Below the pieces are notes generated by a model, which had not been told where the DNA came from, did no database searches, and saw nothing but the letters and a program-made list of their open reading frames with translations. From Ulva prolifera (taxonomy: Eukaryota > Chlorophyta > Ulvophyceae > Ulvales > Ulvaceae), in contig CM041200.1 of assembly GCA_023078555.1 (NCBI GenBank), positions 4,616,936-4,680,935 on the forward strand: 64,000 nt of DNA. The letters are read 5' to 3'. This document shows positions 1,336 to 63,356 of this stretch, one piece after another (position 1 is the first letter of the stretch; the number at the start of each line of letters is the position of its first letter). Both the position numbers and the translations under genes were made by a program.

Positions 1336-4300
1336 ATGGATACAGACCTAGCGGCCCTTTTACAGCAACTGCAACAAGTGCAGGAGCAACCGGCCACAGT
1401 ATGTACCGAACTGTGCAGGCTTTCGAGGCGTACTTACGACACTTGTCCCGCGACTGTTTGAGGGGCCAATCGGGCACGTTTGTGCTGTCAGCTTGCCTTC
1501 CCCTTGCGCTGAGGCGTCTGTGTATCCTGCAGTGCCATGTTCATGCAACGTTGCAGTGTGTATACACAGATGAAGCCGGTCTGTACTGCCATTGATGTCC
1601 ATACCAATATTCTGGCACCGTTGCCTCCATATTTGATGTCGTCCCAGTGAGCCTGTCCCCTCTGCACAGCGGTCATCTGACGATGCGGTGTGACCGCAGA
1701 TTCGCCTTTCAGATCGCATGGCTGTCGATCTGATCGAGAAGGTCAAGAAGATTGGCGTCCTGGAGGACACCTTGCTCCACACAACAAATGGAAAGGAGTA
1801 CGTTACCACTGGCAAGCTGATCGAAGAGATCTCTGAAACTGTGGATGCTCAGGGTGGCCGAGTGGCCATTGTGGATCTGCCTGGCCTCCTTGGCGTCGAC
1901 TTCGGTCATTGCAACGCCCAGGCACAGGTTCTGCTGCAGGTGGGGACCTGCTGAGGCATGCTGACCAGCGCACAGCTTCCTGTGCAGGGCTAGACTGCAC
2001 AGCCTTGCCTCATCAGGTTGGCAACTGCAGGGCAGCACAACAGTGCCAGCCTTCCATGCACCCGGCCGATGCAGTACAGCATCGATGGTCTGCTTTATGC
2101 AGGCAAGATCAGGTACAATCAAGCTCGTGAATGGCGACCTTATCTCCCAGAAATTCTTCGCGAAAATGGCAGAGCTGGTAAATGACATGCTCACCATTGC
2201 CCCTGCGCTTGGGGTGACAGAGCTGGCTCAGCACTTTGCTCTACCAGCCGAGCAAGTGCGGGCCTGCCTGGAAGCACACATGGGCTCCGTGATACACGGT
2301 GAGCTTTTTTGCGGCTGACTGGTGGCCTGTCAGCCCTGCATGGCGTCGTACAGTCTTTGCCCAAGGCTCCGGTGTTGGTCACGATTTGAATGTGGCCTTG
2401 CAACGGTGCAGGCACGCTGGAAGGCAGCATGCTCTACACGCCAGCATTTCTTAGGTCAGCGAAAGACTTCCTGCGTGGCACACTACATGCTGCGCTCCGG
2501 CCAGTCCACGTGGCTGACGTCCTTGCGTGCAATCCCTTCCCGCATTCTGCTGCTGTCAACAAAAAGCTGGCAGCATCGCTGGTACAAGAACTGCTCGTCG
2601 ACCGTGCGATTGCTGGCACCTTTCAGCCTGCAGGCCTGGTGTTCCATCCCAGTGCATATGAGGCGGCCCAGGTCCGTGCTGCACATTCCTCCCTGGCGCA
2701 GAACCGAGTCATTGACTACAGCATGCTGGCATCGTGGGGCATCTCTGATGCCAAACAGTTTCTGCGGAAGCACTGCCCAGATGGCATCGCTTTGGAGACA
2801 ACATATATCAGTAGGCTCCTGGTGGACGAGGTGAGCTGCTGCTGCATGATCCAGGAATAAAAAATTGTGCATAGCCTTCTCAGTCCGCCGTTGGTTGATG
2901 CAACTTCAACTTCAGATGTTGCCTCTATGCGCACTGCGTGATGCCTGTGATCAATCTGCTGGCCAAGTGGAATGCCAAGTGGAATGCTGACAGGTTGGGA
3001 GGCATCATGCAGTGCAGCACTTTTGGAAGAGCCTGACATTCACTGTGCACAATCATTGTGCGCCTGCCACAGTGCCTTGACGCCATTACAAACCCTTGCA
3101 TAAACGAATTGCCAATATTATGCACTCCAGCTGCCACAGCGCCTGTGCCTGTGCAGATCGTCGCTGCTGTTGAGGAGGGCCTTCCAGCATGTGGCTTCTT
3201 GGATGTCCACGAGGCTGTCTCGGTGCACTTGGACACACAGACCTGGCATGCACTTGTGCCCATGAGCGAAGCCATCCAGTCAAGAGTGCAACAAGGCTGC
3301 AAGCTACTGGCTCACCGCTTCCTCGCATGTCCAGAGTTTCTGGACCTGTGCAAGGAAGCTGCCTGCAAGGCAGGTGCTGCAACTGCAGAACATGACCTGC
3401 TACAATCCAACTGCCCAGGCACAGGTAGCAGCCCTATCAGGGTTGGCTCAGCCTTGACTAGTGCCATGAATAGTGCGCTGCTGCTGCTGCTGCTGCCTGT
3501 TCAACAAGGACAGAATCAGATAGGACACAAGCAGGACAGGAGATGATGCTTTGAGCAGTCTGGTGGGGTGGCTGACCCCCTGCAACTCGCACTGTCTGCC
3601 ATGGCTGTGTCATTGTGCTGGGCCAGTTGCATCATGATGTGCCTGGTGCCAGCAGGCCATGAGGGAGGGGGAGGCTTGCCAGAGGGGGATCTGAAGAAGA
3701 GGGGACGCGAGAGTGGCATGCATGGCAGTCGGGCTGCAGCTGCTGGAAAGAATCTGCTGCAAGTGGCACTGCATGGAGCACTGCTGGAGGGCTGCTTTGC
3801 GGAGGAGCGACCCTGTGACGACCTGGTGGATGCACTGCTGGAGGCTTTCCACAGGGAGGCAGAGGAGGCCTACCTACAGCGGGTGCACAAGGGCCTTGCT
3901 GCGGTGCGACCTCCAGCAACCTTCAGCATGGATGCTATCTTCGACAGCCTCTATGGCAACGAATGGGTCCATTTGTCTACCTGTTTCTGCATGAATTGAT
4001 TTTGTGTCTGACGTCAAGGGTCCTGCACCTGCAAGTATGCTATATGCCATGGTCATGCCTGCTTGGAGTCCTGGCTCTCCTTGCCGACACAACTTGTATG
4101 AGACTTGCTCCTGACAATCATGCATATTGCACCAGATACACTCCAACAATTCCAAGCACACCAGCATACTGCAGTCCTGTTGGCTGTCCAAGCTGACCAC
4201 ATGTGAAACTTGGGTGCTGCCCAGACACGGCGGCGGGGTAATCTCATGTTGTGCTGTTGTGCTGTTGTTTGAGATGACAACAGGTTCAGGTGTTCATTGC

Positions 4301-8007: not shown

Positions 8008-11000
8008 ATGGAGGCTTTGCCAAGCAGCAGCAACAAGGATGAGAAAGACAAAGCCTGCACAGGTGGCACTCTCCCTCATGCCCGCAGCTCCTCTCCTGTG
8101 GCTCGCTCGAGCTTAATGATGCCCAGAATGATGTACCTGCAGACTCATTGCAGCCCTTGCTGCCCACCAGGTTCGGGTCGTCGGGCCCGACCACACAGAA
8201 CAGGGTCACCTGTGTGGATAGCAGCCCTTGAATGATGCAAGGCGACCCCACACTGCTACCCACACCTGCCCTCTCGTGCACACATCTGCGGTCTGCCGAG
8301 CTACCCGTGACTGCCCCCTATAGACATACCCCCCCCCCCCCCCCCCCCCCCAAAACTTCCGCACAGACGCCTCCACTGTGCAGGCTCTCCCTCGCCGGAT
8401 CCAGCACACAAGCGCAGCCCGGCGCATGAGGCTGCAACGCCCAGGCCTGCACCGGCCGCACCCCCCAGCCCTGGCGGCGCCGGCCCGGCAGCACAGAACC
8501 CGCCGGAGGCCACCGTGGCCAGCACCTCCACCACTCCAGCCACCAGCGCGGCACAGCTCAGCACAGGGGTCCGTGTGGCCGCGCGACCGAGCGGCGAGAC
8601 CGCCTCGAACCCGGCACATGAGCCTGGGGGGCCCGCCGCGGAGCCGGTGAAGAGCTGCAACCTGTGCGGCGTGGAGTTCCCGCGCAGTGAGTTCAAGGTG
8701 CTGTCGGGGGGGCGGAGGGCGTCTTACTGTGTGCGCTGCACCGGCCTCGTGTGTCAGGGCCGGACGCGGCGCCTGTCAATCCGAGACCTGCGCGACGCGA
8801 TGAAAACTGGGGAGCTTGAGACCCTGCTGCGTGGCGAGGCCCCGCTGCCGGCGGATCACAAGCGCTGTCAGCTCTGCGCGGAGGTGCTGCGGCTGAGCAG
8901 TTTCCGGCCGCTGCCGCGGGGTGGGCACGAGTCGTACTGCGGGACGTGCAGCAAGTATGTGCGCCGAGGCACGAAGCTCGGCCTGAACATCGATGGTGTT
9001 CGGAAGGCACGGGAGGTGAGGCCGCTCCGAGCTGGGAAGCGCTGCGGATGTGCGCAGGAGCGCGGCGTGTGCGTGTGTTGCTGTGTGTGGCTGCCTACAG
9101 CCTGTGCGGGATCGATGTGGGTATAACGTCTCTGGAAGCTAGGTAAGGGGCCCTACGCAGGAATCTGAAGCCCCAGCACACATGCCCACCGCACAAGCTG
9201 AGCCTGGTTCCTTACCCGAGCAGTTGTGGGCTGGCAAGCCGTTGTCTGGAGGTGGTTTTCAATCCGAATCGAACCTTCCATTCATATGATGAATGCCGTG
9301 TCGTCTTCTTCTTCTTCACAGCGATGTGTCAGTGCTGAGACTGTTTGGTCACTGCAGGGCAGTGGCTGCTGTCGTGGGTCGTGGGATGACAGCGCTTTGG
9401 GCCTGCTGTACCTATCAACTGTGTTCTATCGGCCATGATTTTTCGGAAGGAAGGATGCCAAGTTGACAGTTGTGTGCAGGATGGGACTCTTGACAAGCTG
9501 GTGAAGGATGTAGGCACGGCATGTAAGCCCGGGCACAAGCGATGCAACCTGTGCAGCGAAGAAAAGGCTAACGACGACTTTTCAACAACGTCCAAAGGCC
9601 GAAGCTCCTATTGCGCTTGCTGCGAGCGCCTGGTGCGTCGCGGTCACAGCAAGGGCCTTCAGATGGAGACGATGCGCAACGCATTCAAGGACGGCACCAT
9701 CCACACGGTGCGTCTTCAGTCCGTTCCACTCTGGAGTGTCGACAAGCGTCGCCGCCGTCATGACGCGTCACAAGGTATGCCCATGCACGACGGCAGTAAT
9801 AATGGTTGTGCAGCAGACACCGCAGCTGCGCGCAGAAATGATGGGACGGTCAAACATCGAAACGCTCGACTTCCATTCTGATCCAGTAGGTAGTGGCGTG
9901 TGCAAGCTGCGGGGATTGCAAGCCAGGTATTGATCAACGGCGAGGACGGCGGTTCACGAGAGCCACGAAATCGCTCACCTCGGACGTCACGCCTTCCACA
10001 CCGCATGCAGCAACGCGTTGGAACGTTGCAACTTTCCAAGCTCCATATCCCAGCAACCACACTCTAGGGCGCACGCTGGACGACGCACAACAGCCCGCCT
10101 CAGCGATACCCCCTGTCGTCACATTGTTCAACGCAGAACGGTACAGATGCCATCTCGAGATGTTTTCAAAGGCCCCACAAGCTGGTGCAGATATGAACGA
10201 CGCTGTTTTCTCGGACGGAATTCTGGGTTTTCACCATTCACGTAAGCCTGGCTGGCGATGGTAGTGTCGTGCTCAGTGGCGACGGACGCATATGAGGGAC
10301 GCGTCCGTTTCATCCGGGGCGAACGGCGTCTTGCATGTAGCGGCGAACATTGTAATCCACAACAACAGCACCACCACAACTGCAGGGGAGCTCTTCACAA
10401 CCGAGCGTAATTGTGCGTATGCATCGCTCACGTTTACGCCAGCGTTTCGTGCACCACGGTGTTGATCGGCGATCGGTCCAACTTCTTCAAGCGATCTTGG
10501 ATTGTACGCGACGATGGCCTGCGTCCGCGTCACAGGAATGCGTCCGGTGGGATGTGTCAACAGGACACAACCGGGGACAGCTCCGCACGATGGTCCCGTA
10601 TCTGCTGCATGTACGCATGATTACGTAGCCATGTAAAGTAAAGAAAATCTAGATTTACTGAGCTCAGTAAATCTCAGCTGAGCCGTGTCCTGACGAGGAC
10701 ATTGACAACTCCGAATTAACGGGACCACATGTCGAAGGGGTAAACCCCCCTCAGACGGTCGACCGACTCAGGGCCTCCTCCTGCGCTAAGCGAGGTGGTC
10801 ACTCATGGCCGCTTCGATTCCCCAAAGCGCACGCGGAATCGAACTCATGACCTCCTGTCATACTGTCCTCACCCCATTGGACTAATGTGGGCATGGCGTT
10901 GCCTTTTGCTGTCTCCAGAGCATCGCCGGCTGTTGCACACCACCTCACATTTGACGGACGGCCGTGCATGTGCAGCTGCTTCCACCCCCAGCGACGTCAG

Positions 11001-12313
11001 CCCGTCCAGACCGCAAGGCGCTGTCTGTACCAGACGGCCACAAAGCGTGCAACCTCTGCGAGCAAGTGCTATCGGAGGCTGACTTCAAGCTCAAATACGA
11101 CGGCTCCCTGGGGTCGTATTGCAGCCCATGCGACCGGCTCGTCGGCCGCGGCCGCCGCCGGGGCCTCACGATGGAGGCCATGCGAGCCGGCTTCAAGGAC
11201 GGCAGCCTGCATGCGCACCTCGAGAGCCAGCCGGTGACGGGCAGCGTGACGCCGGCGCCGGCGGACGGCCGCGCGGGCGATGGCACCAAGGCGTGCAACC
11301 TGTGCTCACACGAACTGCCGCTGACGCGCTTCCGGGTGTCGTCCGGGGCGCGCATCGGCGCGTACTGCATGGACTGCGACAAGCTCATTGGCCGCGGCCG
11401 GCGGCGGGGACTCACGATCGACATGCTGCGCACATGCATGGTGCAAGGGGTGCTTCACGAGACGCTGAGCCTGCCGCGGGAGGGCAGCCGCTCGGGGGAG
11501 GGTGCATCGGAGCCGCTGGCGCATAGCATGTCGAGGGACGGCACCGCCGCCAGTGGCCCGGTGCCGGGCCTGCCAAACGGCGCCAGCATCACGTCGGCTC
11601 AATTGCCGCTGTTTCCGGTGCCGCTCGGGGCGGCGGCTGCGCATAGCGACTGCGTGAGCCCCCAGTCTGGCGCCAAACAAGAGGAGCTGCTGCGAGATCA
11701 GCAGATTGGGTGTGTTTCGCTGCTGCCTGCAGCTGCGAGTCTCTGTGCCTGTCCAGTCGGTTGCTGCGGGGTGAATCGGCTTCATGCTGTGGGCACAGCC
11801 ATCCCTCTGCGCCCCTGTGTCTGAGGCTGGGCTAATGCTGCAGCACATACGCAGCTGCACTGGCCCAATGGTGTTGACTTGGCGTGACGCAGCAAGGATG
11901 CTGCGGTCCATTTGACAGCGTTGTGAGACGACATAGTGTCTAGAGGGTTGACTTGCATGTCGTGCTGTTTGTGTGTGACAAGGACAAAGGCTGCGAGGCA
12001 AGCAGCACCGCGATAATAGCGAGCACCGCAAGGATACGACCACCGATGTGCCATGTGCAGGGCGCCATCTGTGGCGGCGGCGGCTCTCACTCTGGCGTCA
12101 ATGGCGGCACAAAGCACAGCAGGGCATGAGGCTCTTTGCGCTGCTGGAGTTGAGGGCACATCGATGGCCCCGGAAGGACGGGAGCGGGCTTCCCCCCTCG
12201 GCTTGAAACGTGACCTGGAGGGCACGCAGCCTAGTGGGGAGAGGCACCGGCCTAAGCTGTCAGAGCAGGCAGCCGACTTGGAGCGTACGGACTCTGAGAC
12301 ACTGTCTGACTGA
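8008..12313 (+). CDS. Protein with five tandem Cys4 finger modules, function unknown
   Basis: Five exons join in phase: 8008-8062, 8384-9015, 9480-9707, 10976-11709 and 12061-12313, giving 633 residues. Five copies of one module begin at about residues 110, 180, 251, 330 and 412. Each reads C-x2-C-x(19,20)-C-x2-C with Phe inside the loop and Tyr just before the third Cys (CNLC...YCVRC, CQLC...YCGTC, CNLC...YCACC, CNLC...YCSPC, CNLC...YCMDC). Each is followed by a basic stretch (RRG, RGRRRGL) and, where complete, a helix-like MR-x(5)-G-x(2,3) tail. The exon 2/3 junction falls inside the module-2 tail. The start ATG at 8008 gives MEALPSSSNKDEK. The region before module 1 is rich in Pro and Ala; the C-terminus is polar (LGLKRDLEGTQ to SETLSD). 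The four Cys suggest a zinc-binding finger like those ahead of HNH/endonuclease VII domains, but no nuclease motif is seen. I do not recognise the family; a DNA- or RNA-binding role is inference. Introns 1 and 3 carry transposon remnants. Confidence 0.78.
8168..8256. mobile_element. MITE-like element T, diverged copy in intron 1
   Basis: It shares GGGTCGTCGGGCCCGA and CACAGAACA near its left end, and GCGACCCCACACTGC at its right end, with the copies at 26522-26617 and 40761-40860. It lies inside intron 1 of the five-module Cys4 gene. Confidence 0.5.
8329..8351. repeat. Homopolymer C tract, 23 nt
   Basis: An uninterrupted run of 23 C in intron 1 of the five-module Cys4 gene, ending 32 nt before the acceptor used by exon 2. 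The exact length could be an assembly approximation. Confidence 0.85.
10629..10905 (-). mobile_element. SINE-like element S1 in intron 3 of the Cys4 gene
   Basis: Read on the minus strand, it starts with a tRNA-like head: A-box-like TTAGTCCAATGGGG and B-box-like GAGTTCGATTCC, followed by GCTTAGCGCAGGAGG, which resembles the 5' half of elongator tRNA-Met. A body follows (CCCGTTAATTCGGAGTTGTC, then TCAGGACACGGCTCAG), then an 18-bp palindrome of half-site AGTAAATCT, and an AC/TTT-rich tail of TTTAC units. Related copies lie at 24344-24605, 25076-25262 and 26329-26475. The tRNA-like stems no longer pair well, so this is not a working tRNA gene. Confidence 0.6.
11972..12026 (-). repeat. SINE-like family S2, 3' tail copy
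   Basis: Minus-strand copy of the S2 tail (as read on the plus strand: TGTGACAAGGACAAAGGCTG, then GCGAGGCAAGCAGCACCGCG). It sits in the last intron of the Cys4 gene, about 35 bases before the acceptor of the final exon. Confidence 0.55.
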
Positions 12314-13523: not shown

Positions 13524-16500
13524 TCACTTCGCTGCTTTCTTCGCAGCGGGTGTGGCGCCACCTTCTGAAGCTTTGCGCTTCTTGCCCCCACTACCTTCAG
13601 ACTTGCGCCCATTGGTACCCCGTTTGGCATCTGCTTCCTCATTTTCTTTGTCAATGAGACGGATCAGAGTGTCGCAACGCCTGTTGAGTTCAACAGGCGT
13701 GCGGCTTTTAAAGAACCAGTCAAAGCGGAAACGCCAGGACTTGCGAATTTCAGCTTTCATTTCATCCCACGCACCATAACCTAGCTTATGCATCATGCAC
13801 ACCAGGAATCGATCCTCCTCCTCTGTGTACGCCTTGTTCTTGTTTGCCCCATACTGGATTTTGAGCTCCAGCCATGGATTGCGGTATCTGCCCATTTTCG
13901 CTTGGATGGCCTGCACGCACGGTGAGGCAGTGCAGACACCCTGATGCAATGGCCCCAATTACATGTGCCCTCCTGAAGTGATACCTCCTTGGCACCTGTA
14001 GGGCAGCAGAAGCACCCCTTTCACACAGGAGTGAGGATTCGCACCTTCATGATGCTCTGCTGGCGCTGAATCTTTTGCTCTCCACGCTCTATCTGCTTGA
14101 TGTAGCGCTCATAATCGTGCAGCTCTTTATAGCGTTTGAAGAACACCTCGGCGTAGGCCTTCACTTCCTCTTCGCTCTTGCTCTCGACTTCCTTGGCAAT
14201 TGCATCGATGTTTTCACGTCCGTGCTTCTCACACGCTCGTAGGAATGCGTTGAAGTCACGGCGCATCCAGTCCTTGAATGGGTTCTCAGTGAGCAGCCGA
14301 TCACGCTCTAGCTGCTCCTCCTCAGTCAGAGGCCTTGCAAAATTATCATCCCTGCATCATGTGCGCCATGGTGTAAGGTGCACCGTTCATGCGCAGTAAA
14401 CATGGCGATGATGGCAGCAAGCGTTCTTGGAAAATGGACAATCCAAAGCAGTGATGAGAGGCAGGGAACACGCACGCTGCAAGCTGAGCATCAATCTCCT
14501 CTGGAGTCACGTTTGCCTTCTCCAATTCATGCCGGCGGTGTGTCTGATTGTACTTCCACATCTCGTGAGCGTGCTCAATGTTGTACAGCTCCTCAATCCG
14601 CTTGGTATCAAAGAATTGGAAATCATTCAGCTGCGGCATCTTCGCAAGCCGAGGTCCCTTCTGTCGCTCTTCCTGCTTCGCCGTCTTGACGCTGGCCTTG
14701 ATGAAGTCAGCTTCGTTGTAGTTGATGCGCGTTTTACGCTGCCTGGGCTGCTCCACCCAATTGGACGCCATGGCCTTCTTGAGATGGCTGAGGTCCTTTT
14801 TGGCAGTGCGGTAGTCATCTTCATCTTTGAATTCGTAGACAATTCCACCATCCATGGTGAACTGCTTTGCGCTGGCAGTAAATTCCGCCATCTTCTCGTT
14901 GAGAGCAGCCTGCAGAGGGGCCGCACAAGTCAAGAGCAGACATGCCACTTAAGGCAGTAAGGGTGTCACACCTGCTGCCATTGAACAGGAGCTGGCAGCA
15001 GATATGCAAGGTGTTGAACTCAGGATCACTGTTGCTTTGATCATGTGTCCTCACTCATATATTCACAAGGACCAGATGAAAGCCATAGGACAAGCTTGCG
15101 AAGCCTGCATTCGAGCTTTGGGAATGCTTCGGGCTGACAGCAGGAAGCTGTACATAACACCTAGACAGGGAAGTCGTTACACTGCTGGCACTTGAAAGCT
15201 GATCGTCCAGACATGTGAGATAGTATGCAGCAATGAATACAAGCTGCGTTATCATGTGTGCAGTGAAGTATGCAGCAGGCACACCGTCTCGGATTCACCC
15301 TTGCTGATGATCAGGTCAATGTCTTCATCAGTAATTTTAGCAGGCTCCGAAGAGAAGACCTTCTCAGCGCCATACTTGACCATTGAAAGCAGGTCATCCT
15401 TGCCTACCTTGCTCGCATTCTGAGTCAAGCGGCCCTGCTGAATGACAAGTGCATCCAGACGAAGCTTCTTGTACGCCTTTTCGATAACCTACAGACAGAG
15501 CCGAAACCTTACAATTTGCAATGCACAAGGACGCTCAACGCCACTGTTGCTTCAAATTGCAGCAGCTTGTGGGGCAACAGTGGAGTGGGTGTTGAGCTTG
15601 CAAATCACGCAAGACTCTGATACGTTGCACACCTTTTCCTCGATTGCATGCTCTGTGCAGAAGCGGAAGACCTGTACCGGCTTTTTCTGTCCGATACGAT
15701 GTGCACGATCCATGGCCTGGAGGTCCATCTGCGGGTTCCAGTCCGAATCATAGAGAACGACAATGTCCGCGGTTGCCAGGTTGATACCCAGGCCACCAGC
15801 ACGTGTGGACAGCAAAAACACGAACTTCTCTGAATTTGGTGCATTGAAGTTGTCGATCATGTTCTCACGGTCCTCTCCTGACGTGTTGCCATCAATGCGG
15901 CAGTACTGGAAGCCGCGATAGTGCATGTAATCTTCGAGGATGTCAAGCATGCGTGTCATCTGGCTGAAAATCAAGACACGCGAGTCCCGCTCTTTCAGCT
16001 TTGGCAGGAGCTTATCAAGTAACACCATCTTGCCACTGTTCTCAACCAGGTGGTCACCTGCACCGGTGTCTCTTCAAGTCTACTGGACACATTGTGAGAC
16101 ATTCTCTGCATTTCGCATAGTTGTGCATGCATCGTGTTTATACAGCAGCACAACAGTAAAGCTGTGACGCACACCTGTGATGTAGGGAGGCCCGGGTTCC
16201 GCTCCCTGAAAGAGGTATGGGTGATTGCAACATTTACGCAGCTGCATCACAATGTTCAGCAGCTTGCTACGGTCTGCCCCCCCAGTAAGTGTGGAGATGT
16301 CCTTTTGAAGCAGTTTCTTGTACCATGTCTGCTGCACTTCAGACATGCCAATCTTCAGGATGGTCTCCTTCTTTGGGGGAAGGCTCTTCTCGACATCATT
16401 CTTCACACGACGCAGCAGGAATGGCCGCAACACCTACACATCTGAGCTGGTGTAAAAAGTCGGCTTCTTTGCAAGAAGGCTCAGACTCATCACAAAGCAC

Positions 16501-18576
16501 ATCCAGGTTGCTGCGATTGCAAAGCCCAAATCTCACCTTATGTAGTTGCTGGACAACCTCAGCTTCACTGCCACCAGCACCTGCCCCGAACCACTCATCA
16601 AACTTCTCTGCAGAAGAAAACACTTCTGGAAGCAAAAAGTTCAGCAGCGCCCAGAGCTCATGTAGGTTGTTCTGCAGCGGTGTGCCGGTGATGAGGAGGC
16701 GATATGATGTCCGAAACATGCGGACTGTCCGTGAGAGGATCGAGTTTTCGTTCTTGATCCTGTGAGCCTCATCGATGATGATGTAGCGCCAGTAGGTTTT
16801 CTTGAAGAAATTCTTCTCCTTGATTACCATCTCATACGACGTAATCATGGCATCGTACTTCCCCGGCTGCAGCTGTTCTGCCTTTTGGTGCTCTCGCTGC
16901 TCAGCATTACCATGAAACTTGACAGCCCGCAGGGACGGGCACCATCGCTTGAACTCGTTCAGCCAATTATGCAGCGTTGATTTCGGGACGATGATCATAT
17001 GTGGTCCTCGAATTCCACGGAACTCCAAGAGGTAGCCTAGCAACGAAATTGTCTGCAGTGTTTTCCCCAGTCCCTGCAAACATTCGTGCAGCTGTCATGT
17101 ACACTATGATACGTTGTAGCGCAATTATGTTTGGCGATGCAATGGCTTCATTCTACCTCACCCTTAGAGGCTTGCATTGACCATGTGCACATGTGCATGT
17201 TGCTGCTGTACCATCAAATACTTTAGTGATATATCATTTCAGAGAGATCCATTGTGACATACATACTTATTGATGTACACTTCAATGAACAGGGCTTGGC
17301 TAAGGACTGTCTACCCCCACCCAAAAGGTAATCAATCATGATTGCATCTGTCCTGGGCATATGGACAGATGCAACTATGCACTGCTGCCTGCATGCAGAC
17401 TTGATACCAAGAGAATCTCCATATGGAACAAAGAGACACGGGCAACTGTGACTGATCAAGTATGCCACACTCTGCACGCAAGCCACACGAAGCAACAGCG
17501 TATGCAGTGCGCCGTGTGCAGCAAAAGCCCACATGCAAGATGATACACGCAATCATTTACTTCAACTCGAAAACCAAGTGTCCATTCTTGTCAGGGACTG
17601 CACTAGCGCAATGCCGGACTAGGAGGTAGCGAAGCAAACCGCCTCCCGGGCTGAATCACGCACCATTTCGTCGGCAAGGATGCCATTGATACCATTGTCG
17701 TACAGATGAATCAACCAGTTCAAGCCCTGTAACTGATACTCCCGCATGGTACCAAACTTGATAACAGAAGGCTGCACAGTGAGTCGATGCCCCCGTGCGG
17801 TTTCACCCTCTGTTTCTTCATCCGCAAGCAGTTCTGCATCTTCATCTTCCTCACCAGAACGGTCGTGGCGATCGCGTTTTTTCTTCCTGCACACACTTCA
17901 AATTGACAGCTTGTGTCACATGAGCGCTTGGGTTCCCGCAACAGGCACACAGGTATGTAGGAGTACTTTTGAAGGCTTGCTCCTGCAAAATGCTGGAAAA
18001 CCTCTGCCTGCTTTAGTAAAAACTGAAGCCGATTCGCCTTCACCTGTTCCTGCAGGTCTTTGCCCACTTCAGAATCATCCCTGTAAAATCTAGGCACCGG
18101 GGAGTGATAGATTTAGGCATAAACATAGCCAACAAGATATTCAGAAATCAAGGGGCAAACAAGAGCTGCTGATGAAATACCTCGGAGTTTGCGGCCGACG
18201 AGTTCTGCTGTTGGCGGATGTCGTCGAGGCGCTGTCGCTTCGCTTGATCCTGCTTGCGGAGCCTTTCCCTTTCCTTGCGAGCTATTTCCTGCCTTTCATT
18301 CTCGGAGTAGTCCTGTATGCAAGTGGCACCTGTTTCATAGAGCCCAGCAAAGCACGCAGCCCCACGCGGCGAGCAATATACACCGCCTGAAATTTTGCTG
18401 CTACAACAAAGAGAATTTACATCATCATCTTCGTCGACATCGGGGATAGCGTCATCCTCTTCGTCTGCCGTGGTGTCTTCAACACCGTCGACCTCCTCCG
18501 CGTTCACAATGTCGAAATCGTCATCCTCGGCGCCGGATGGAGCCGTAGACGCTCCAGGAGTTGTAGTATCTACCAT
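13524..18576 (-). CDS. ISWI chromatin-remodelling ATPase (CHR11/CHR17, SMARCA5 type)
   Basis: ISWI slides nucleosomes using ATP. Exons on the minus strand: 18421-18576, about 18161-18312, 17967-18080, 17664-17886, 16537-17073, 16175-16433, 15633-16057, 15285-15488, 14476-14909, 14045-14351 and 13524-13910, giving about 1065 residues. In order they encode an acidic N-terminus; AutoN-like [14 protein letters not shown] and [12 protein letters not shown]; the SNF2 ATPase with Walker A ([15 protein letters not shown]), DEAH box ([13 protein letters not shown]), [76 protein letters not shown] and [21 protein letters not shown] ([15 protein letters not shown]); SANT ([18 protein letters not shown]); and SLIDE ([27 protein letters not shown]). 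Wording is closest to plant ISWI. The exon 2/3 junction is the only awkward one: the obvious donor (GTATTT at 18180) breaks phase, whereas GTTTGC at 18160 keeps it. Start taken as the ATG at 18576. Confidence 0.93.
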
Positions 18577-24343: not shown

Positions 24344-24605
24344 AAATTAAAGTAAATCTAAAGTTACTGAGCCGTATCCTGTTGGACATTGACAACTCCG
24401 AGTTAATGGGACCACATATACCGCAGGGTGGTACTACTGTGCTCTGTGAAGGTGAAGTAAATCTGGATTCACTGAGCCTTATCCTGAAGAGGACATTGAC
24501 AACTCCAATTGATCGGGACCACATGCCGCAGGGGTAAATCGCCTGGAAATCCCCCCTCAGACGACCGTACGCAACTCACAGCTCTGTGGCGACGCAGGAT
24601 GTTTG
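24344..24605 (-). mobile_element. Two S1 SINE-like copies in tandem
   Basis: Two minus-oriented S1 copies follow each other: a truncated one (about 24344-24430, tail then GACATTGACAACTCCGAG) and a longer one (about 24455-24605, tail, GACATTGACAACTCCAATTG, GGGACCACATGCCGCAGGGG, CCCCTCAGACGACCG). Each starts with an AGTAAATCT-type tail, as in the copies at 10629 and 25076. Confidence 0.65.
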
Positions 24606-25075: not shown

Positions 25076-25262
25076 CTGAAGTAAATCTAGATTTACCGAG
25101 ACGTATCCGTAAGAGGATATCGACATTTCCGAATGAACGGGACCCCATCCCGAAGGGGTTAACCACCTGGAGCACCCCCTCACACAGCCATACGCAACTC
25201 GGGCCTCCTCCTGTGCTAAGCGACGTGGTCACGCATGGCTGTTTCGACTGTGGTGCCGCCTG
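25076..25262 (-). mobile_element. SINE-like element S1
   Basis: Nearly complete minus-oriented copy: AGTAAATCTAGATTTACC tail palindrome, then TTCCGAATGAACGGGACC, CCGAAGGGGTTAACCACC, and the tRNA-Met-like head (on the minus strand GTCGCTTAGCACAGGAGGAG). Confidence 0.65.
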
Positions 25263-26328
25263 CCATTTCACCCTTGTGTTTGCATCACACAGTGGCCGAT
25301 ACAGTCCGATTAATCAAGTCATCAGTTGTGGCATTTGGATGTATGCAGTCACAAAGGACAGAGGCCGGGCAAAAAGCCGGTTCTGTGGGAAGCAGTGGCT
25401 CCCCAGGTGCAAGTGTGTCGTAGCTGTGATAACGAGAGTGCAGCAGATCAGAAGCATTTGGATGTGAGTCTGCGGGCACTCTGTAGGTCGGCTGTCCAGT
25501 GCACAGAATATAGGACGTTGCTATCAAGTCCAGGTCACCTTTGACAGGCAACGTACAGATGAGATATCTCTGCTGTTTGTGTGTCTGCAGTCATGAGTGC
25601 TGACGACAGCCGCGATCAGTGTGCTGAGCAAGGGACGAGGTGCAGGACTCTTCACTGTACGATGTGTGATCATTGCTGGTGTCAGAGCTGATATTGCCAC
25701 AAGTGAGACACACGGCATAGTTATACTGTAAATCTTTGACTGGCAATTGACAGGACTCTTCACTGTACGATACGTGATCATTGCTCGTGTCAGGGCTACT
25801 GTGACGTACACAGGAGGGCGCCGGCCTCGCTGCCGTGCCAGCCCGTATCCAGTGCTGCAACCACTGTCATGTGGCACATGACAGCCCAAGGTACGCAGGC
25901 GATACTTTCAGGCGTGCCGAGTGTGTGCAGACCGACTGCTGCCAGGCACAAGACTCCAGGACTTCATGTACGAGAACCCGTGCATGTGCTACAGCACACA
26001 GGTCTGTCCCTGTTTACAATAGCATGGCGTCAAGCCAAGCCCGGCATCTGAGGTTATGAACAAGATCACCTAACAGCACTCTGAGCACTTCAACAAAATG
26101 TGTTTGGAGTGGCCAGCACTCTGCAAGATAGCTGCGGTTTGCTCCGGAACCCTTCCACCTCTCAGTGCCAGCCTCTGACGTCAAAGTCGACTTTGCTGTG
26201 CCCTGGCTGCAACGCAGATCCCCGGCGAAACTGCAGTCACTGTCATGGCTGCTGCAAGACTCGAGCTGCTCTGAACCCACACAGCGATCGCTGTCCATCT
26301 CACGGCTTGCCACCACATATGGGAGGAG
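25263..26328. other. Non-coding, with a local direct repeat
   Basis: About 1.1 kb without a supported gene. A segment containing CAGGACTCTTCACTGTACGA occurs twice (around 25643 and 25751), each followed by a GTGATCATTGCT match, giving a direct repeat of roughly 40 bp with a spacing of about 108 bp. Confidence 0.45.
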
Positions 26329-26475
26329 GTCCTGGGGGTATACGTCTGTCTGAGGGGGGTTTCCAGGTGGGTTGCCCCTTCGGCGCATGTGGTCCCGTTA
26401 ATCCAAAGTTGTCAATGCCCTCTTCAGGATCCGGCTCAGTACATTCAGATGTACTTTGCTTTACTTTTACATGTC
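26329..26475 (+). mobile_element. SINE-like element S1, plus orientation
   Basis: Plus-oriented copy lacking most of the head: TCTGAGGGGGGTTTCCAGG, then CATGTGGTCCCGTTAATCC, TTGTCAATGCCCTCTTCAGG and a TTTACTTTTAC tail. It mirrors the minus-oriented copies elsewhere in the window. Confidence 0.65.
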
Positions 26476-26521: not shown

Positions 26522-26617
26522 GTTGGGTCATCGGGCCCGATCACACAGAACAATTCCGAATATTCGGATCTAATTTCGGGGTGGCAGTCCTAGAAATGCT
26601 GCAAAGTGACCCAACAC
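26522..26617. mobile_element. MITE-like element T
   Basis: About 95 bp with short terminal inverted repeats (left GTTGGGTC, right GACCCAAC) and an internal TCCGAATATTCGGA palindrome. It is closely similar over its whole length to the copy at 40761-40860 (shared TCATCGGGCCCGAT, AACAATTCCGAATATTC, TAATTTCGGGGTGGCA). Confidence 0.7.
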
Positions 26618-26796
26618 TGCTGTGCACATTGCAGCCAGGTAAGTATGCACCTGGCAGGTTGCATGATTATGAGGAGCACATGTGTTCGGAGCGGCATTCG
26701 GCAGCCGCACTTAAACACACACCAGATTTATCACAAGCCAGAGGCAGTCGTCGTCATCATTGGCCCCGTCCGCTAAATGCCGTGTCTGACTGGCCA

Positions 26797-33626: not shown

Positions 33627-36412
33627 TCACATGTCGCCGTCGTACGAGCGCGCGAGCCATGTGTGCGCCTGCAGGTCGTCCACCGTCGGCCGCCGGGAGG
33701 GGTCACTCTGGAGGCAGCGCGACATGAAGTCCTTCGCGAGGGGGCTCACGAAGGACGGGAAGACGACGTGATTGCGCATGATCTTCTCCAGTGTGACCTT
33801 CATGTGCGGCCCGCTGAACGGCAGTTCCGTGGTGAGCAGCTCGAACGCCAGCACGCCAAGGCTCCAGATGTCCACCTGCACCAACCCCACACCGCCCACG
33901 TCAATACCGGCACGCCGTATCTCGTGCGCACGGCACGACGGCCCACTGCTCCCGCAGCGGCGCGGACACGCGGCAGCGCAGACGCGCACAGCGAAGCACG
34001 CTGCTGCACCATCGAGCCCCGGCGTCATGCATGCACCGCGCCGGAGGACAACGGCCCGGCGAGCACGCATACGGCCGGCGTCAGAGACGGCAGCCGTGAG
34101 GTGCAGGGGCGGATGGAGAGGGGGGAACGGCACCTTGTTGTCGTAGCTGAAGGAGTCGGACTCCTTGTTCTCGAGGGGATGGTGCTTGTAGGGGCACTGC
34201 AGGATCTCCGGGGCTATGTAGTTGAGGGTGCCGAGGCGAGTATTGGCGACCTCGATGTGGTGGTTGATGGACAGCCCGAAGTCAGTGAGCTTGATGGCGA
34301 AGTTGTCGCCGAGCAGGATGTTCTCGGGCTTCAGGTCGCGGTGGATGAGGCCCTGAGCGTGGATGAATGACAGCGCAGACAGCAGCGGCCGGAAAATCTG
34401 CACACGAGCCAGAGCGCTCAATGCGAATGAATGCAGGTGCCAAGCCGGTACGGGTCCATGAGGCCTGCTGGGCATAACAATTCTGCAGCAGGGCCAGAGA
34501 TACCATCTCGCACGCCGATCTCGCAGGCGTGCATGAGCCCTCGAGCGGCGCCCCGGCCTGTGTGTGCATCTGTGTGCGATACTGGCACGAACTCGGGAAC
34601 AGGTGTGACACTTCTTTCAACGGAACGGAACGAAGGGTCAGCACACCCCATCCCGTTGTCAGTCATCCTGTCGACACGTGTCACTGTGCTGTGACCTTAC
34701 CGAGCGGCGTGTGCGGGCAGGGGGGCTGTACCTTGGTGACGACGACGCTCTCCGCGACGCCGGAGGGGCCGTGGCGCTTGAGCCAGGTGTAGATGTCGCC
34801 GTGCGGGGCGTACTCCTCCGCGACATGGATGAACTGCGAATCCTTCCACGCACAGTACAGCCGGATGATGTTGTCATGTAGCAGCTGGCTGTGCATCCGG
34901 ATCTCCCGCGCCACCTGGTACCTACACGCAGACATCACCGTCACTCGCCCGCCCGGGGGGAAGCCGCCGCCTGGCCGCGAGGCCCCTAGACGAGACCGTG
35001 AGAATCGAGGCCCGCCGCTGTGAAGAGCGCCGCGCACGCGAGAGAACGCCTATTCACTCACTGTTACTCGGAACAACCGAAATGAATCGCTCAGCGGCAC
35101 GCGGCCAGTGATGAGTGAGCGCGCAGCAGGCGGGACGGTGTTTTGTCCCTATCGTGTGGGCGCTCACCGCTCCATGTCGCCGAGCTGCTGCTTCTTGTAC
35201 ACCTTGAGGGCGACGGTGGTGCCAGTGACCTTGTCGATCGCCTGCAGTACGCGCGAGTTGTGGCCGACGTACAACAGCTTCTCCAGCGTGAACTGCTGAA
35301 CGCTCCACGTGCGCCGCTGCAGCACGGCGGGGCAGTGCGCCGCGAGCACGAGCAGCTTCGACTCGTCCGCATCCTGCAGCGCGGGCACCGTCGTGAGCAC
35401 TCATTCCCAAGCGAAGTGGCGAGATGATGGATGGCTCAACTGGTTGGTGAACTGTGCTGCGTGGCCAGACATGCGGCGTGCAGTCACAACGCCTGCCACA
35501 TGTCAGCAGGATGTGTGAGCCAACAGCGTCGCCAAGACATTTAACATGCTGAGGTGTTGATGTGAGAACGAAGCAAAGGTGTGTTACAGAGAGGGACATT
35601 TTCACTCTGGCCGCACGAAAAGAGCCAAACTGAGTATTGAAAACTCCAAGCAAGCGAAGGACGGTGTCAGGTTTCGCAGGGAGGCGCTGCCGGGGGGGGG
35701 GGGGGGGGGCAGCGCACGTCCATGGTGTTGCTGGAGGACATCGCATTCGTCGACGGCCCGAGGCTGTGCTCCTTGGGCATGTTCTGCATGTTCATCGGCA
35801 CGGACATCGACAGCGCGGCATTCGACTGGTGCATGATGTCCTGCAACCGCTCCTCGTAGTCCGGCATGTCGGCGTCAGCGTTCATACGCGCGGCCGGCTG
35901 TTGCTGCTGTGCGTGGTGGGGGGGATGCGGCCAGTGGGAGCCGGACAGCGCCTGGCTGTGCCGGGCCGGCGCGGCGGGGGCGCGGAGGTCCATCGGGGGG
36001 ACGACCGGGCTGTTCATCGTCGGGGACGGCGGCGCCGGCCGGTGCAGCAGGCCTAGCGAGGGTGCGGAGTTGGCGTGGGGCATGGAGCGGCCCGGGGACA
36101 TGCCTCCGTCCTGCGGGCTGAGCCAGGACGACGGGGAGCCTGTGGCAGCGGGGGGGTGCCATGAGCCCTGAGCTGATGGCTGCGACATCGCGGGCATGAA
36201 GTCTACGGGGAGGAGAGAGAAGTCATCTTGGTCGTCCGGCGGCATCATCGGGCCCATGCCGTGGTGGACCTGTACGGCTTGGGTCGGGTTGGATTGGATG
36301 CATGCATACGTGGTATAACGCGTTATAACGGCGACGTTCGACGCTGGCTCGGGCGAAACGGTCACGTAGGGAAGCGCACATGTGGGTTCATCTGGGAGTA
36401 AGGCATCGCCAT
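33627..36412 (-). CDS. Aurora/CALK-like serine/threonine protein kinase
   Basis: Six exons join in phase: 36380-36412, 35718-36269, 35168-35373, 34732-34921, 34134-34397 and 33627-33875, giving 497 residues. Residues 1-195 are a Pro/Met/Ser-rich, probably disordered tail starting [11 protein letters not shown]. The kinase domain spans about 222-495: Lys252 (VALKVYKK), Glu270 of helix C ([10 protein letters not shown]), HRDLKPEN at 346-353, DFG at 366-368, [12 protein letters not shown] at 380-391, then [13 protein letters not shown]. The glycine loop is unusual: LYVGHNSRV has a single Gly. The block [17 protein letters not shown] after APE resembles the CPxKxxPxxNKxx segment I associate with the algal CALK group of Aurora-like kinases, which act in flagellar length control and disassembly in Chlamydomonas. 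That assignment is by memory of the family, not by alignment. A G18/C18 tract lies just inside the second intron. Confidence 0.85.
35692..35709. repeat. Homopolymer G tract, 18 nt
   Basis: A run of 18 G (C on the transcribed sense strand) starting 8 nt after the donor of intron 2 of the kinase gene. Confidence 0.85.
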
Positions 36413-60573: not shown

Positions 60574-63356
60574 CTAGATCCCCATCCGCCTGCGCACGCC
60601 TGAGCCGCCCGCTCGCTCCTTGTCCCGTTTGCGTTTCTCCCGGGCACTCAAGACACCCGCGACGCCGTCGTCGGCGTCAGCAGCTGCCGCCGCCACCCTG
60701 AGGCCCTGCGCACTCTCCTGCACCGCCTTGGCCTTGGCCAGCGCCTGGGCCTCCATCTCTATCGCGGCGTGCCGCTGCACCGAGCGCTTGTCCATGCCCG
60801 GCTGGTTGCGTTTCTGCACGACACAAGAGCATCAGTCACCGCCCGAGCGCTCCACCAGACCTCCCATCGTCTTCCTAGCCCAGCCTGAAATCTGGGTTCC
60901 TGCGTGTTGGGTTATGTACCACAGTGGCTGTTGGCTGCACATATCCGAATGGTCGTGCCTGATTCGTTGAGACGGCATACCTGTGGCTACGAATGTGTCT
61001 GGTGCTTTCTCAAGTAGACTACAGCGACACCGCCACGCACATCAACAATTCGTGAATTCGGGACTGAACAAAGCAGAAATTAGCAAATTAGCAAGCAGAA
61101 ATTATGTAGCGCCAAGCACTCCGCACTGCAGGCGGTCACATCACCGCCGCCAGCTGACCCCCCCCCACCCCACACCGTGCGGCTTTGGTCCACCCCCAAG
61201 GCCGCACTCCCCACCTACACGCCACAACACACTGCCGCCGCGGCATCGCCGCCCGCAGAGAGGCCGGCCGCACCTTGATCGAGAAGAACATCGGCCCGAG
61301 CTCCGCGAGCCACTCCGGCTCCACCGCGGTCACGTTGTTCATGTACTCCTTGTGCGTGTACACGAGTTCGTGGTACACGAGGTAGTCCGGCGAGACGCCC
61401 ATGCCGAAGAGGGCGGAGGAGGGGTGCAGGTGGCAGGGCATGCCGGAGCGCGCGTTGCTGTACTCCCCGATGCCCTTCATCTTGGCGGCGTTGTGGAAGT
61501 ACGCGGAGCAGATGGCCTTGCGCACGATGTCCCACTCCGCGGCCGCGCTCTCCACCGGAAGCTTCTGCTGCTCCATGATTTCCTTGAGCTGCTCACGCAC
61601 CTGCAGCCGGCGGGGGGGGACTGTCGGAGCAGAGTTCATGAACAACATGGTACAGATAATGCCCTGAGATTTGATTGTGAATGCGCCGGGGTCTCGGCGT
61701 GCATCAGCTGGGACGCCACCGGGAGCTTGTGACAGGCACGTCTGGCATTGCCCCGAGCCCGGCTGAGGAATGACATTACGCATCAAGGTAACTACTCAAA
61801 CGGTGGAATGGTGCGAGGGGGGGGGGGCGCGTGGCATGGGGGCCAACAGGCGCCGCGCTCGCCGTAGCACAGGAGCGGCGGGTCACCTCATAGCAGGGTG
61901 ACCCCAGCACGCCACCAACACACGAGGCGGGCGGGTGCAGGCAGCAGTGAGTGAAGGCGCATGCATGCCGTTTAGAGGGCGCCACGGGCCACGTTGCCGC
62001 CACACTGGCGGCACCGTCTGCCAAAAACAGGAGCTGCTGCACCTCGCCTCCATGCATGCCCTGCTGTTCTGCAACAGCTAACATCGAGCGCAGCAGGCAG
62101 GTGGTGGCTGTGCCTGGGTTGACGGTCACTTGAACCGGTCGCTGTGAAAGGGGGCAGAGGCGGACCTCCTTCGCCTTGCGCAGCGCCTTGGGGTGGAGGA
62201 AGTTGAGCATGGCCCACTTGTCGCGGTAGCCGTGGCTCTTCCACTGCAGGTACACGTTGAGGAGCGTGAGGTGGTCGCTCTCGGGCACGAAGAACTTCTC
62301 GTGCGCGGCGTCGGCGGCCTCCTGCCTCGCGGTCGGGCGGTAGAAGATCGCGGGCGCGGACAGCATGCTCACGATCGTGAGCACCTCGTCGCCGCACGCG
62401 AGCTTCGCGCCCGTGATCAGCATCTTCGCGAGGGGCGGGTCCAGCGGGAACTCCACCATCTTAGCGCCTAGCGGCGTCAGCGCCCCTGCACACATCACAG
62501 GCTGTGGATAATACAGTGTGACAGCTTTACCAACTATTGCAACGCAAACTGGAGATTCAAGTGCTTGTGTTCCAACAAACGTTCATCAATATACTAAAAA
62601 GCCAACCTTGCCACCACGATGCCTGGCAGTGCACTTTTGAGACTGTCGGCCACACAACGGCCCGAGCTCTCTTGTGTTTTGCACTCTCACAGACCGCCAC
62701 AAACGCGAGTGTACGTTATTGTGGCCCCCCTGCTTGTTTGAAGCAGCGGGCGCTGCTGCGCCAGCAGCGGCAGTTGCAGTTGCAGTGGCGGCTGTCTGTG
62801 AGGACACACGCCGCTGTGGGTGCTCATGCATGCACGTAGCGGGAGGGCGCTCGATCACGGATGCGCAGCGTGCTGGGCAGTGGGCCACGCGATGATGTGC
62901 GTGTGCATGTGCGCCGCAGCGCATGCAAACACTCGTGCAGATGCGCGCGTAGCTGACTGCATGAGCGCTCGCAGCAGTCCCGTGCTCCAGACCGGACGAG
63001 GCGAACAGCTGCAATTGAAACAAAAAAAATTATGATTCCAAACTGTTTGAGAGCAGAGAGGTGCCCGCACCGAGGTTGTCAAACGCGCCGAGCGTCCACA
63101 GCTGGAACATACTCGACACGATGTTCTCCTGCGGCGGGGGGTCCATGAACGGGAACTGCAGGAGGTTGTCGACCTTGAGGCTCTTCAGCAGCAGCACCAC
63201 GTTGGCCAGGTTCGTGCGCTGGATCTCCGGCACGTTCGCCGACAGCATCTCGTGCTCGAACTGGCCCTTGGTGTACATAGGGTACGCCTTGCCGGGCCCG
63301 GTGCGGCCCGCGCGGCCCTGCCGCTGCTTGGCGCCGGCCTGGCTCACCGGAAAAAC
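60574..63356 (-). CDS. PRP16/DHX38 pre-mRNA splicing DEAH helicase, C-terminal part
   Basis: PRP16 is a spliceosomal DEAH-box ATPase that remodels the complex between the two catalytic steps. Four exons join in phase: 63071-63356, 62166-62485, 61274-61600 and 60574-60813, giving the last 390 residues. Visible are [20 protein letters not shown] (helicase motif VI), [154 protein letters not shown] and [14 protein letters not shown], then a charged tail. The pattern SLFGMG-PDY--YHELV with EYM--VTAV is the PRP16 version rather than PRP2, PRP22 or PRP43. No upstream exon is found between 63357 and the window edge, so that interval is intron. One donor is GTCCGC (62165). Confidence 0.93.
61817..61827. 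repeat. Homopolymer G tract, 11 nt
   Basis: G11 in the PRP16 intron between 61601 and 62165 (C-rich on the sense strand). Confidence 0.7.

What the first reader, a model, noticed from the sequence alone, without database searches (positions are those of the whole stretch)
8008..12313. Five tandem Cys4 finger modules in one protein, family not recognised
Seen: a phase-consistent five-exon gene whose 633-residue product has five copies of C-x2-C-x(19,20)-C-x2-C, each with Phe in the loop, Tyr before the third Cys, and a basic RG...GL stretch after the fourth Cys. Spacing between modules is 70-82 residues, and modules 4 and 5 are most alike after the fourth Cys (GRGRRRGLT). Known: single Cys4 knuckles with a similar first half occur ahead of HNH-type nuclease domains. 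Inference: here the module has been multiplied without a nuclease, suggesting a nucleic-acid-binding array. This is the best candidate in the window for an undescribed protein family.
Basis: partly seen in the sequence, partly recalled or inferred. Interest (0 to 1): 0.75.

Follow-up and report, generated by a model that had tools for sequence, protein, structure and literature searches.

The report
Algal tandem zinc-module protein family
A green-lineage alga carries at least three genes, on different contigs, whose proteins are strings of four or more small predicted zinc-binding modules that no family model we scanned names; each module resembles a non-cutting zinc part of phage and bacterial DNA-cutting enzymes, so these proteins may grip DNA or RNA, which has not been tested.

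The parts
   Evidence: 62 frame-consistent donor/acceptor pairs exist, so frame does not discriminate
8384..9015 (+). exon 2; 5' edge uncertain, 3' edge (GTGAGG donor) good; holds module 1 and most of module 2
   Evidence: GC3 0.85 over the module part
8641..8835 (+). Cys4 module 1
   Evidence: paralogue-only profile i-E 4.5e-8; leave-one-out 6e-15
8851..9015 (+). Cys4 module 2, first 55 residues (last 10 encoded at 9480-9509)
   Evidence: paralogue-only profile i-E 6.7e-10; leave-one-out 5.9e-14
9016..9479 (+). intron 2, phase 0, inside the helical tail of module 2
   Evidence: GTGAGG...TGTGCAG; joining gives 'RKAREDGTLDKL'
9480..9707 (+). exon 3 (end of module 2 and all of module 3)
9528..9707 (+). 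Cys4 module 3
   Evidence: paralogue-only profile i-E 9.3e-13; leave-one-out 1.4e-19
9708..10975 (+). intron 3, phase 0; contains a dispersed repeat at about 10666-10857
   Evidence: GTGCGT...TGTGCAG; repeat copies elsewhere
10976..11709 (+). exon 4 (modules 4 and 5 and a tail); 5' edge 10976 or 11018, 3' edge uncertain
11033..11227 (+). Cys4 module 4
   Evidence: paralogue-only profile i-E 2.3e-10; leave-one-out 5.3e-19; modelled with module 5
11279..11473 (+). Cys4 module 5
   Evidence: paralogue-only profile i-E 4.8e-10; leave-one-out 2.8e-17; AlphaFold2 pLDDT 86.3: strands, then helices 36-47, 52-61, 64-69
12061..12313 (+). putative exon 5 (no module); weakly supported
   Evidence: frame-consistent with a donor at 11710, picked by hand

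Best explanation
The gene encodes a protein built from five copies of a zinc module of about 65 residues: a treble-clef-like Cys4 knuckle (short strands, a hairpin, a helix starting at the second Cys pair) followed by a two-helix tail. It is one of at least three paralogues on different contigs, each an array of such modules without a recognised enzyme domain. The zinc half resembles, in sequence and fold, the non-catalytic Cys4 part that precedes the nuclease in phage endonuclease VII/HNH proteins and the N-terminal part of Hpy99I. The most likely mechanism: zinc holds each module folded; the basic stretch after the fourth Cys contacts nucleic-acid backbone; several modules on flexible linkers bind jointly, so the protein is a DNA-binding (or RNA-binding) scaffold without cutting activity. 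Shown here: modules, paralogues, predicted fold, no D-H pair in the Cys loop, similarity to the pre-HNH Cys4 part. Inferred: zinc binding, nucleic-acid binding, nuclear location, common descent with the phage knuckle.
Confidence: 0.5

Rival explanations
1. Protein-protein interaction scaffold: the tandem treble clefs act like LIM or FLZ fingers and gather partner proteins; the basic patch is incidental.
For: Beads-on-a-linker arrangement; divergent loops and variable charge between paralogues; treble clefs of LIM and FLZ type bind proteins (passages of PMC4047054); RBR/RING and FYVE chains are among the next structure rows.
Against: The most consistent sequence and fold matches are to the DNA-enzyme Cys4 part; neither LIM nor FLZ is among the Pfam rows listed; five of five window modules keep a basic stretch.
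Confidence: 0.27
2. RNA binding in place of DNA binding, for example in RNA processing, with each module clamping backbone as zinc-bearing ribosomal proteins do.
Confidence: 0.18
3. Decayed nuclease lineage: the arrays are remnants of HNH/endonuclease VII mobile elements and have no selected function.
For: Zinc half resembles the pre-HNH part; two C1 Cys4 stretches look degenerate by eye and one C1 module (P2) is not found by leave-one-out.
Against: Open frames with conserved modules in three genes; introns split four modules at different points and GT...TGCAG joining restores them; third codon positions differ more than first and second in 6 of 6 pairs among four window modules (module 3 left out, pairs not independent); no Endonuclease_7 match over its cut-off in the genome.
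Confidence: 0.05

Closest known systems
Phage endonuclease VII / HNH families PHROG 1035, 2255, 2633, 2340 (N-terminal Cys4 part; e.g. SEA_NOOTNOOT_39 of Streptomyces phage NootNoot)
   Same: Cys4 knuckle with C-x2-C, a Phe in the loop, C-x2-C and a leading H-K-x-C (NootNoot Cys 22, 25, 48, 51, counted by eye); window matches cover the first 40-45 residues of the module.
   Different: There it precedes an HNH domain; here it is repeated and no nuclease domain was found. The tail is not covered on window pieces, though on one C1 piece PHROG 2255 and 2633 matches run through it (144-204, 146-209) and on another PHROG 1035 runs over 10-127.
Hpy99I (PDB 3fc3), residues 53/57-106
   Same: First structural row for both modelled modules; lies almost wholly within residues 1-105, the part that mediates DNA binding and dimerization (passages of PMC3765158). 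I recall, without having seen it, that Hpy99I has two beta4-alpha2 Cys4 repeats of which only the second is catalytic.
   Different: Weak Z (4.4-4.7), 18-24% identity, only the zinc half aligns; Hpy99I is a restriction enzyme with a catalytic domain.
FCS-type and FLZ (DUF581) zinc fingers
   Different: Z tied with unrelated rows; FLZ reported absent from the five algae examined there (passages); no FLZ row listed.
IRF-2BP1/2 C3HC4 and Stc1 domains (Pfam PF25454, PF12898)
   Same: Weak matches over the Cys4 region (best E 0.0095 and 0.012).
   Different: All below the curated cut-offs; on single modules each matches 1 of 12.

Membership tests
Pfam Endonuclease_7 / HNH nuclease (beta-beta-alpha-Me) | catalytic Asp-His in the hairpin and Asn/His after the fourth Cys | tested here: not met
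   No D-H pair in 14 of 14 loops; a His somewhere in the loop in 3 of 14 (M2, M5, T4); Asn after the fourth Cys in 1 of 14 (P1) (one search had mis-cut P4 and left out T4)
Pfam Endonuclease_7 / HNH nuclease (beta-beta-alpha-Me) | score over the family cut-off | tested here: not met
   No Endonuclease_7 row for window and C1 pieces or 12 single modules; genome search 0 over cut-off, best E 0.209 at window 26603-26704. C4 exons were not scanned as whole pieces.
Pre-HNH Cys4 knuckle (non-catalytic part of PHROG 1035/2255/2633) | profile match over the Cys4 part | tested here: met
   Best per window piece 1.2e-6, 2.3e-4, 3.2e-6; 5, 6 and 6 of 12 single modules at E<=0.1; 0 of 10 shuffles, whose best match to any PHROG was 0.01
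Pre-HNH Cys4 knuckle (non-catalytic part of PHROG 1035/2255/2633) | followed by an HNH nuclease domain | tested here: not met
   No nuclease domain reported by Pfam in the window and C1 pieces scanned
Treble-clef zinc finger (fold) | knuckle, hairpin, helix with the second Cys pair at its start | tested here: met
   Predicted strands, then helix 36-47 at Cys35/Cys38, block pLDDT about 92; prediction only, Cys4 geometry not measured because no coordinates were available
Treble-clef zinc finger (fold) | bound zinc | not testable with these tools
   needs protein
LIM domain | two zinc fingers in tandem separated by about two residues | tested here: not met
   first-Cys spacing is 70-82 residues with long linkers; definition recalled
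FCS/FLZ finger | family profile match or clear fold match | tested here: inconclusive

The most novel reading that the evidence does not exclude
An algal lineage took the non-cutting Cys4 module that phage and bacterial HNH enzymes carry ahead of their nuclease, kept or added a helical tail, and multiplied it into modular arrays spread over several genes, making a separate eukaryotic class of multi-finger DNA-binding proteins in which each module reads or grips a short stretch of DNA, analogous to (but unrelated to) C2H2 finger arrays.
Probability: 0.18. Interest if true: 0.7.

Novelty: new variant of a known kind. Interest (0 to 1): 0.42.

Why it matters
Modular zinc-finger arrays are among the few protein architectures that can be re-programmed to new nucleic-acid targets. 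A family with its own module, apparently related to the zinc part of phage and restriction HNH enzymes and not to C2H2 or GATA fingers, would show a separate route to such arrays and would give a name to at least three genes of this genome. If it proves to be a protein scaffold, it is still an unnamed domain that merits a family entry.

Tried and rejected
Chance Cys patterns: rejected by paralogue-only and leave-one-out profiles, although the bare pattern occurs 9 more times in the window. Active nuclease: rejected for lack of D-H and of an HNH profile match. IRF-2BP, Stc1, DksA/TraR (NCBIfam, 0.0015), ROS/MUCR (0.005 on one C1 piece), double zinc ribbon, FYVE: below cut-off. PDB by sequence: best E 0.16 with five modules, 0.2 with twelve. 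Giant-virus or prokaryote source: 4 viral-contig scans and 1 genome-contig scan gave no confirmed relative; they use short peptide patterns and exclude only close relatives. tblastn in phages: 16 and 2 records, best E 0.2 and 2. Further family members: eight weak places (loci L009, L017, L035, L054, L057, L058, L060, L062) had best i-E 0.18 with the 14-module profile. Against this, the window-only profile gave 0.0043 to a 31-residue stretch of L017 and 0.023 to one of L009, neither a Cys4 module, so single rows near 0.01 are not safe; P5 at 0.029 with that profile was rescued by leave-one-out (1.6e-5), P2 was not found. Divergent members may be missed. Structure: Foldseek 'pdb' and 'viral' were off; VIA-align saw only 354 and 419 chains, and families not listed are not excluded. 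Literature: nine searches, seen as listings of at most 12 papers each (searches had 879 and 228 hits, not all seen), showed no paper about such an array. One search had an off-by-one exon edge and gave nothing; one search replaced it.

Full report
What is there. The window lies at contig C5:4616936-4680935 of an unnamed 88.9-Mb genome. The genome has 38 exon-level matches over the cut-off to the chlorophyll a/b-binding family, and one of them matches chloroplast chlorophyll a/b-binding chains over its whole length, so the organism is photosynthetic; by recall, several of those chains come from green algae and plants, hence 'green-lineage alga'. I could not name the species. The five modules share 12 invariant columns (K, C, L, C, F, Y, C, C, G, L, R, G).

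Gene model. The two inner introns have GTGAGG...TGTGCAG and GTGCGT...TGTGCAG, both phase 0. The first splits module 2 inside its tail, and joining gives 'RKAREDGTLDKL', in line with the other modules. In the paralogues, GT...TGCAG junctions complete one C1 module ('..ADGTKPCKLC..', close to the leader of modules 4 and 5) and two C4 modules. The outer exons are not established: 62 exon-1/exon-2 pairs stay in frame, and exon 4 has an open end of its own. Among four window modules (module 3 left out because of its gap), third codon positions differ more than first or second ones in 6 of 6 pairs, as expected for a maintained coding sequence, although the pairs are not independent.

A family, not a single gene. 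Nine searches of the genome with single modules or a module pair and profile scans of the fetched loci show two more genes: C1:3346795-3350990 (-) and C4:6811161-6815182 (-). A profile from the five window modules finds five C1 modules (1.9e-11 to 0.029) and four C4 stretches (5.3e-5 to 0.0012), but also gives 0.0043 and 0.023 to two stretches that are not Cys4 modules. A profile from nine C1/C4 modules finds 5 of 5 window modules at 9.3e-13 to 4.5e-8. A profile of window and C1 modules finds four C4 stretches at 4.4e-8 to 5.9e-5; T1 and T3 were seen there only in part, as they run out of the open frame. Leaving out one module at a time, 13 of 14 are found, at 1.4e-19 to 1.6e-5, while reversed decoys never do better than 0.0066; C1 module P2, which has a long insert, is not found. 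So C1 has five supported modules, P2, and two more degenerate Cys4 stretches by eye; C4 has four. These E-values are for small sets of fetched loci. The genome search scores only its best candidates, so three genes is a lower bound.

Fold. AlphaFold2 on module 5 with the five window modules as alignment (module 2 cut at its intron) gives mean pLDDT 86.3 and the order strand 8-10, 17-19, 23-26, 30-35, helix 36-47, helix 52-61, helix 64-69. Helix 36-47 begins at the second Cys pair, which is the treble-clef arrangement. Modules 4 and 5 together fold as two copies with the linker 71-87 below pLDDT 50 and pTM 0.41, that is, beads on a string. No coordinates were available, so Cys4 geometry was not measured.

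How it probably works. Fourteen of 14 loops lack a D-H pair, 3 of 14 hold a His somewhere, and 1 of 14 modules has Asn after the fourth Cys; no nuclease domain was reported, so cutting is unlikely. The module array with its linkers has net charge +24 and pI 9.4, with +3 or +4 in the 12 residues after the fourth Cys in all five window modules. Several basic, flexibly linked modules suit joint binding to a nucleic acid. I therefore favour a non-cutting nucleic-acid-binding array (0.5), then a protein scaffold (0.27). The charge is less marked in some C1 modules (P8 is -1 in that stretch and -5 overall; the P4 entry was mis-cut and is not used), which speaks for diversification or for the scaffold reading.

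Novelty. The fold (treble clef) and the zinc half (pre-HNH Cys4 knuckle) are known. The composite module, its multiplication, and a three-gene family without a nuclease are not named in the Pfam and NCBIfam copies scanned, and the listings of nine searches of the held library showed no paper on it (listings capped, most subscription journals not held). Because no eukaryotic proteome was searchable, I rate it a new variant of a known kind and not a new class.

Noticed in passing
window 10666-10857 (intron 3); also window 24351-24538, 25098-25247 and 26322-26439, L017, L052: Dispersed repeat, copies 74-87% identical over their matched stretches. The strand opposite the gene has stretches that look like tRNA A and B boxes (recalled consensus), so it may be a tRNA-derived SINE; ARAGORN and Rfam (gathering threshold) reported nothing in the window.
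   Followed up: partly
G000:C1:3346795-3350990 (-), locus L026: Paralogue with five supported modules, a sixth with a long insert that leave-one-out does not find, and two degenerate Cys4 stretches by eye.
   Followed up: yes
G000:C4:6811161-6815182 (-), locus L050: Third paralogue with four modules, at least two of them split by introns at different points of the module.
   Followed up: yes
window 14349-17094 (-): SNF2 ATPase exons with Helicase_C and a HAND match below its cut-off, suggesting an ISWI-type remodeller near the array gene.
   Followed up: no
window 2390-2857 (+): Exon matching E3 UFM1-protein ligase 1 (2.4e-17).
   Followed up: no
window 33630-34616 (-) and 61779-62582 (-): Protein kinase exon (1.3e-37) and a helicase-associated HA2_C exon (1.6e-14).
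   Followed up: no
window 8329-8351: Uninterrupted run of 23 C upstream of the putative exon 2 acceptor (counted by eye).
   Followed up: no
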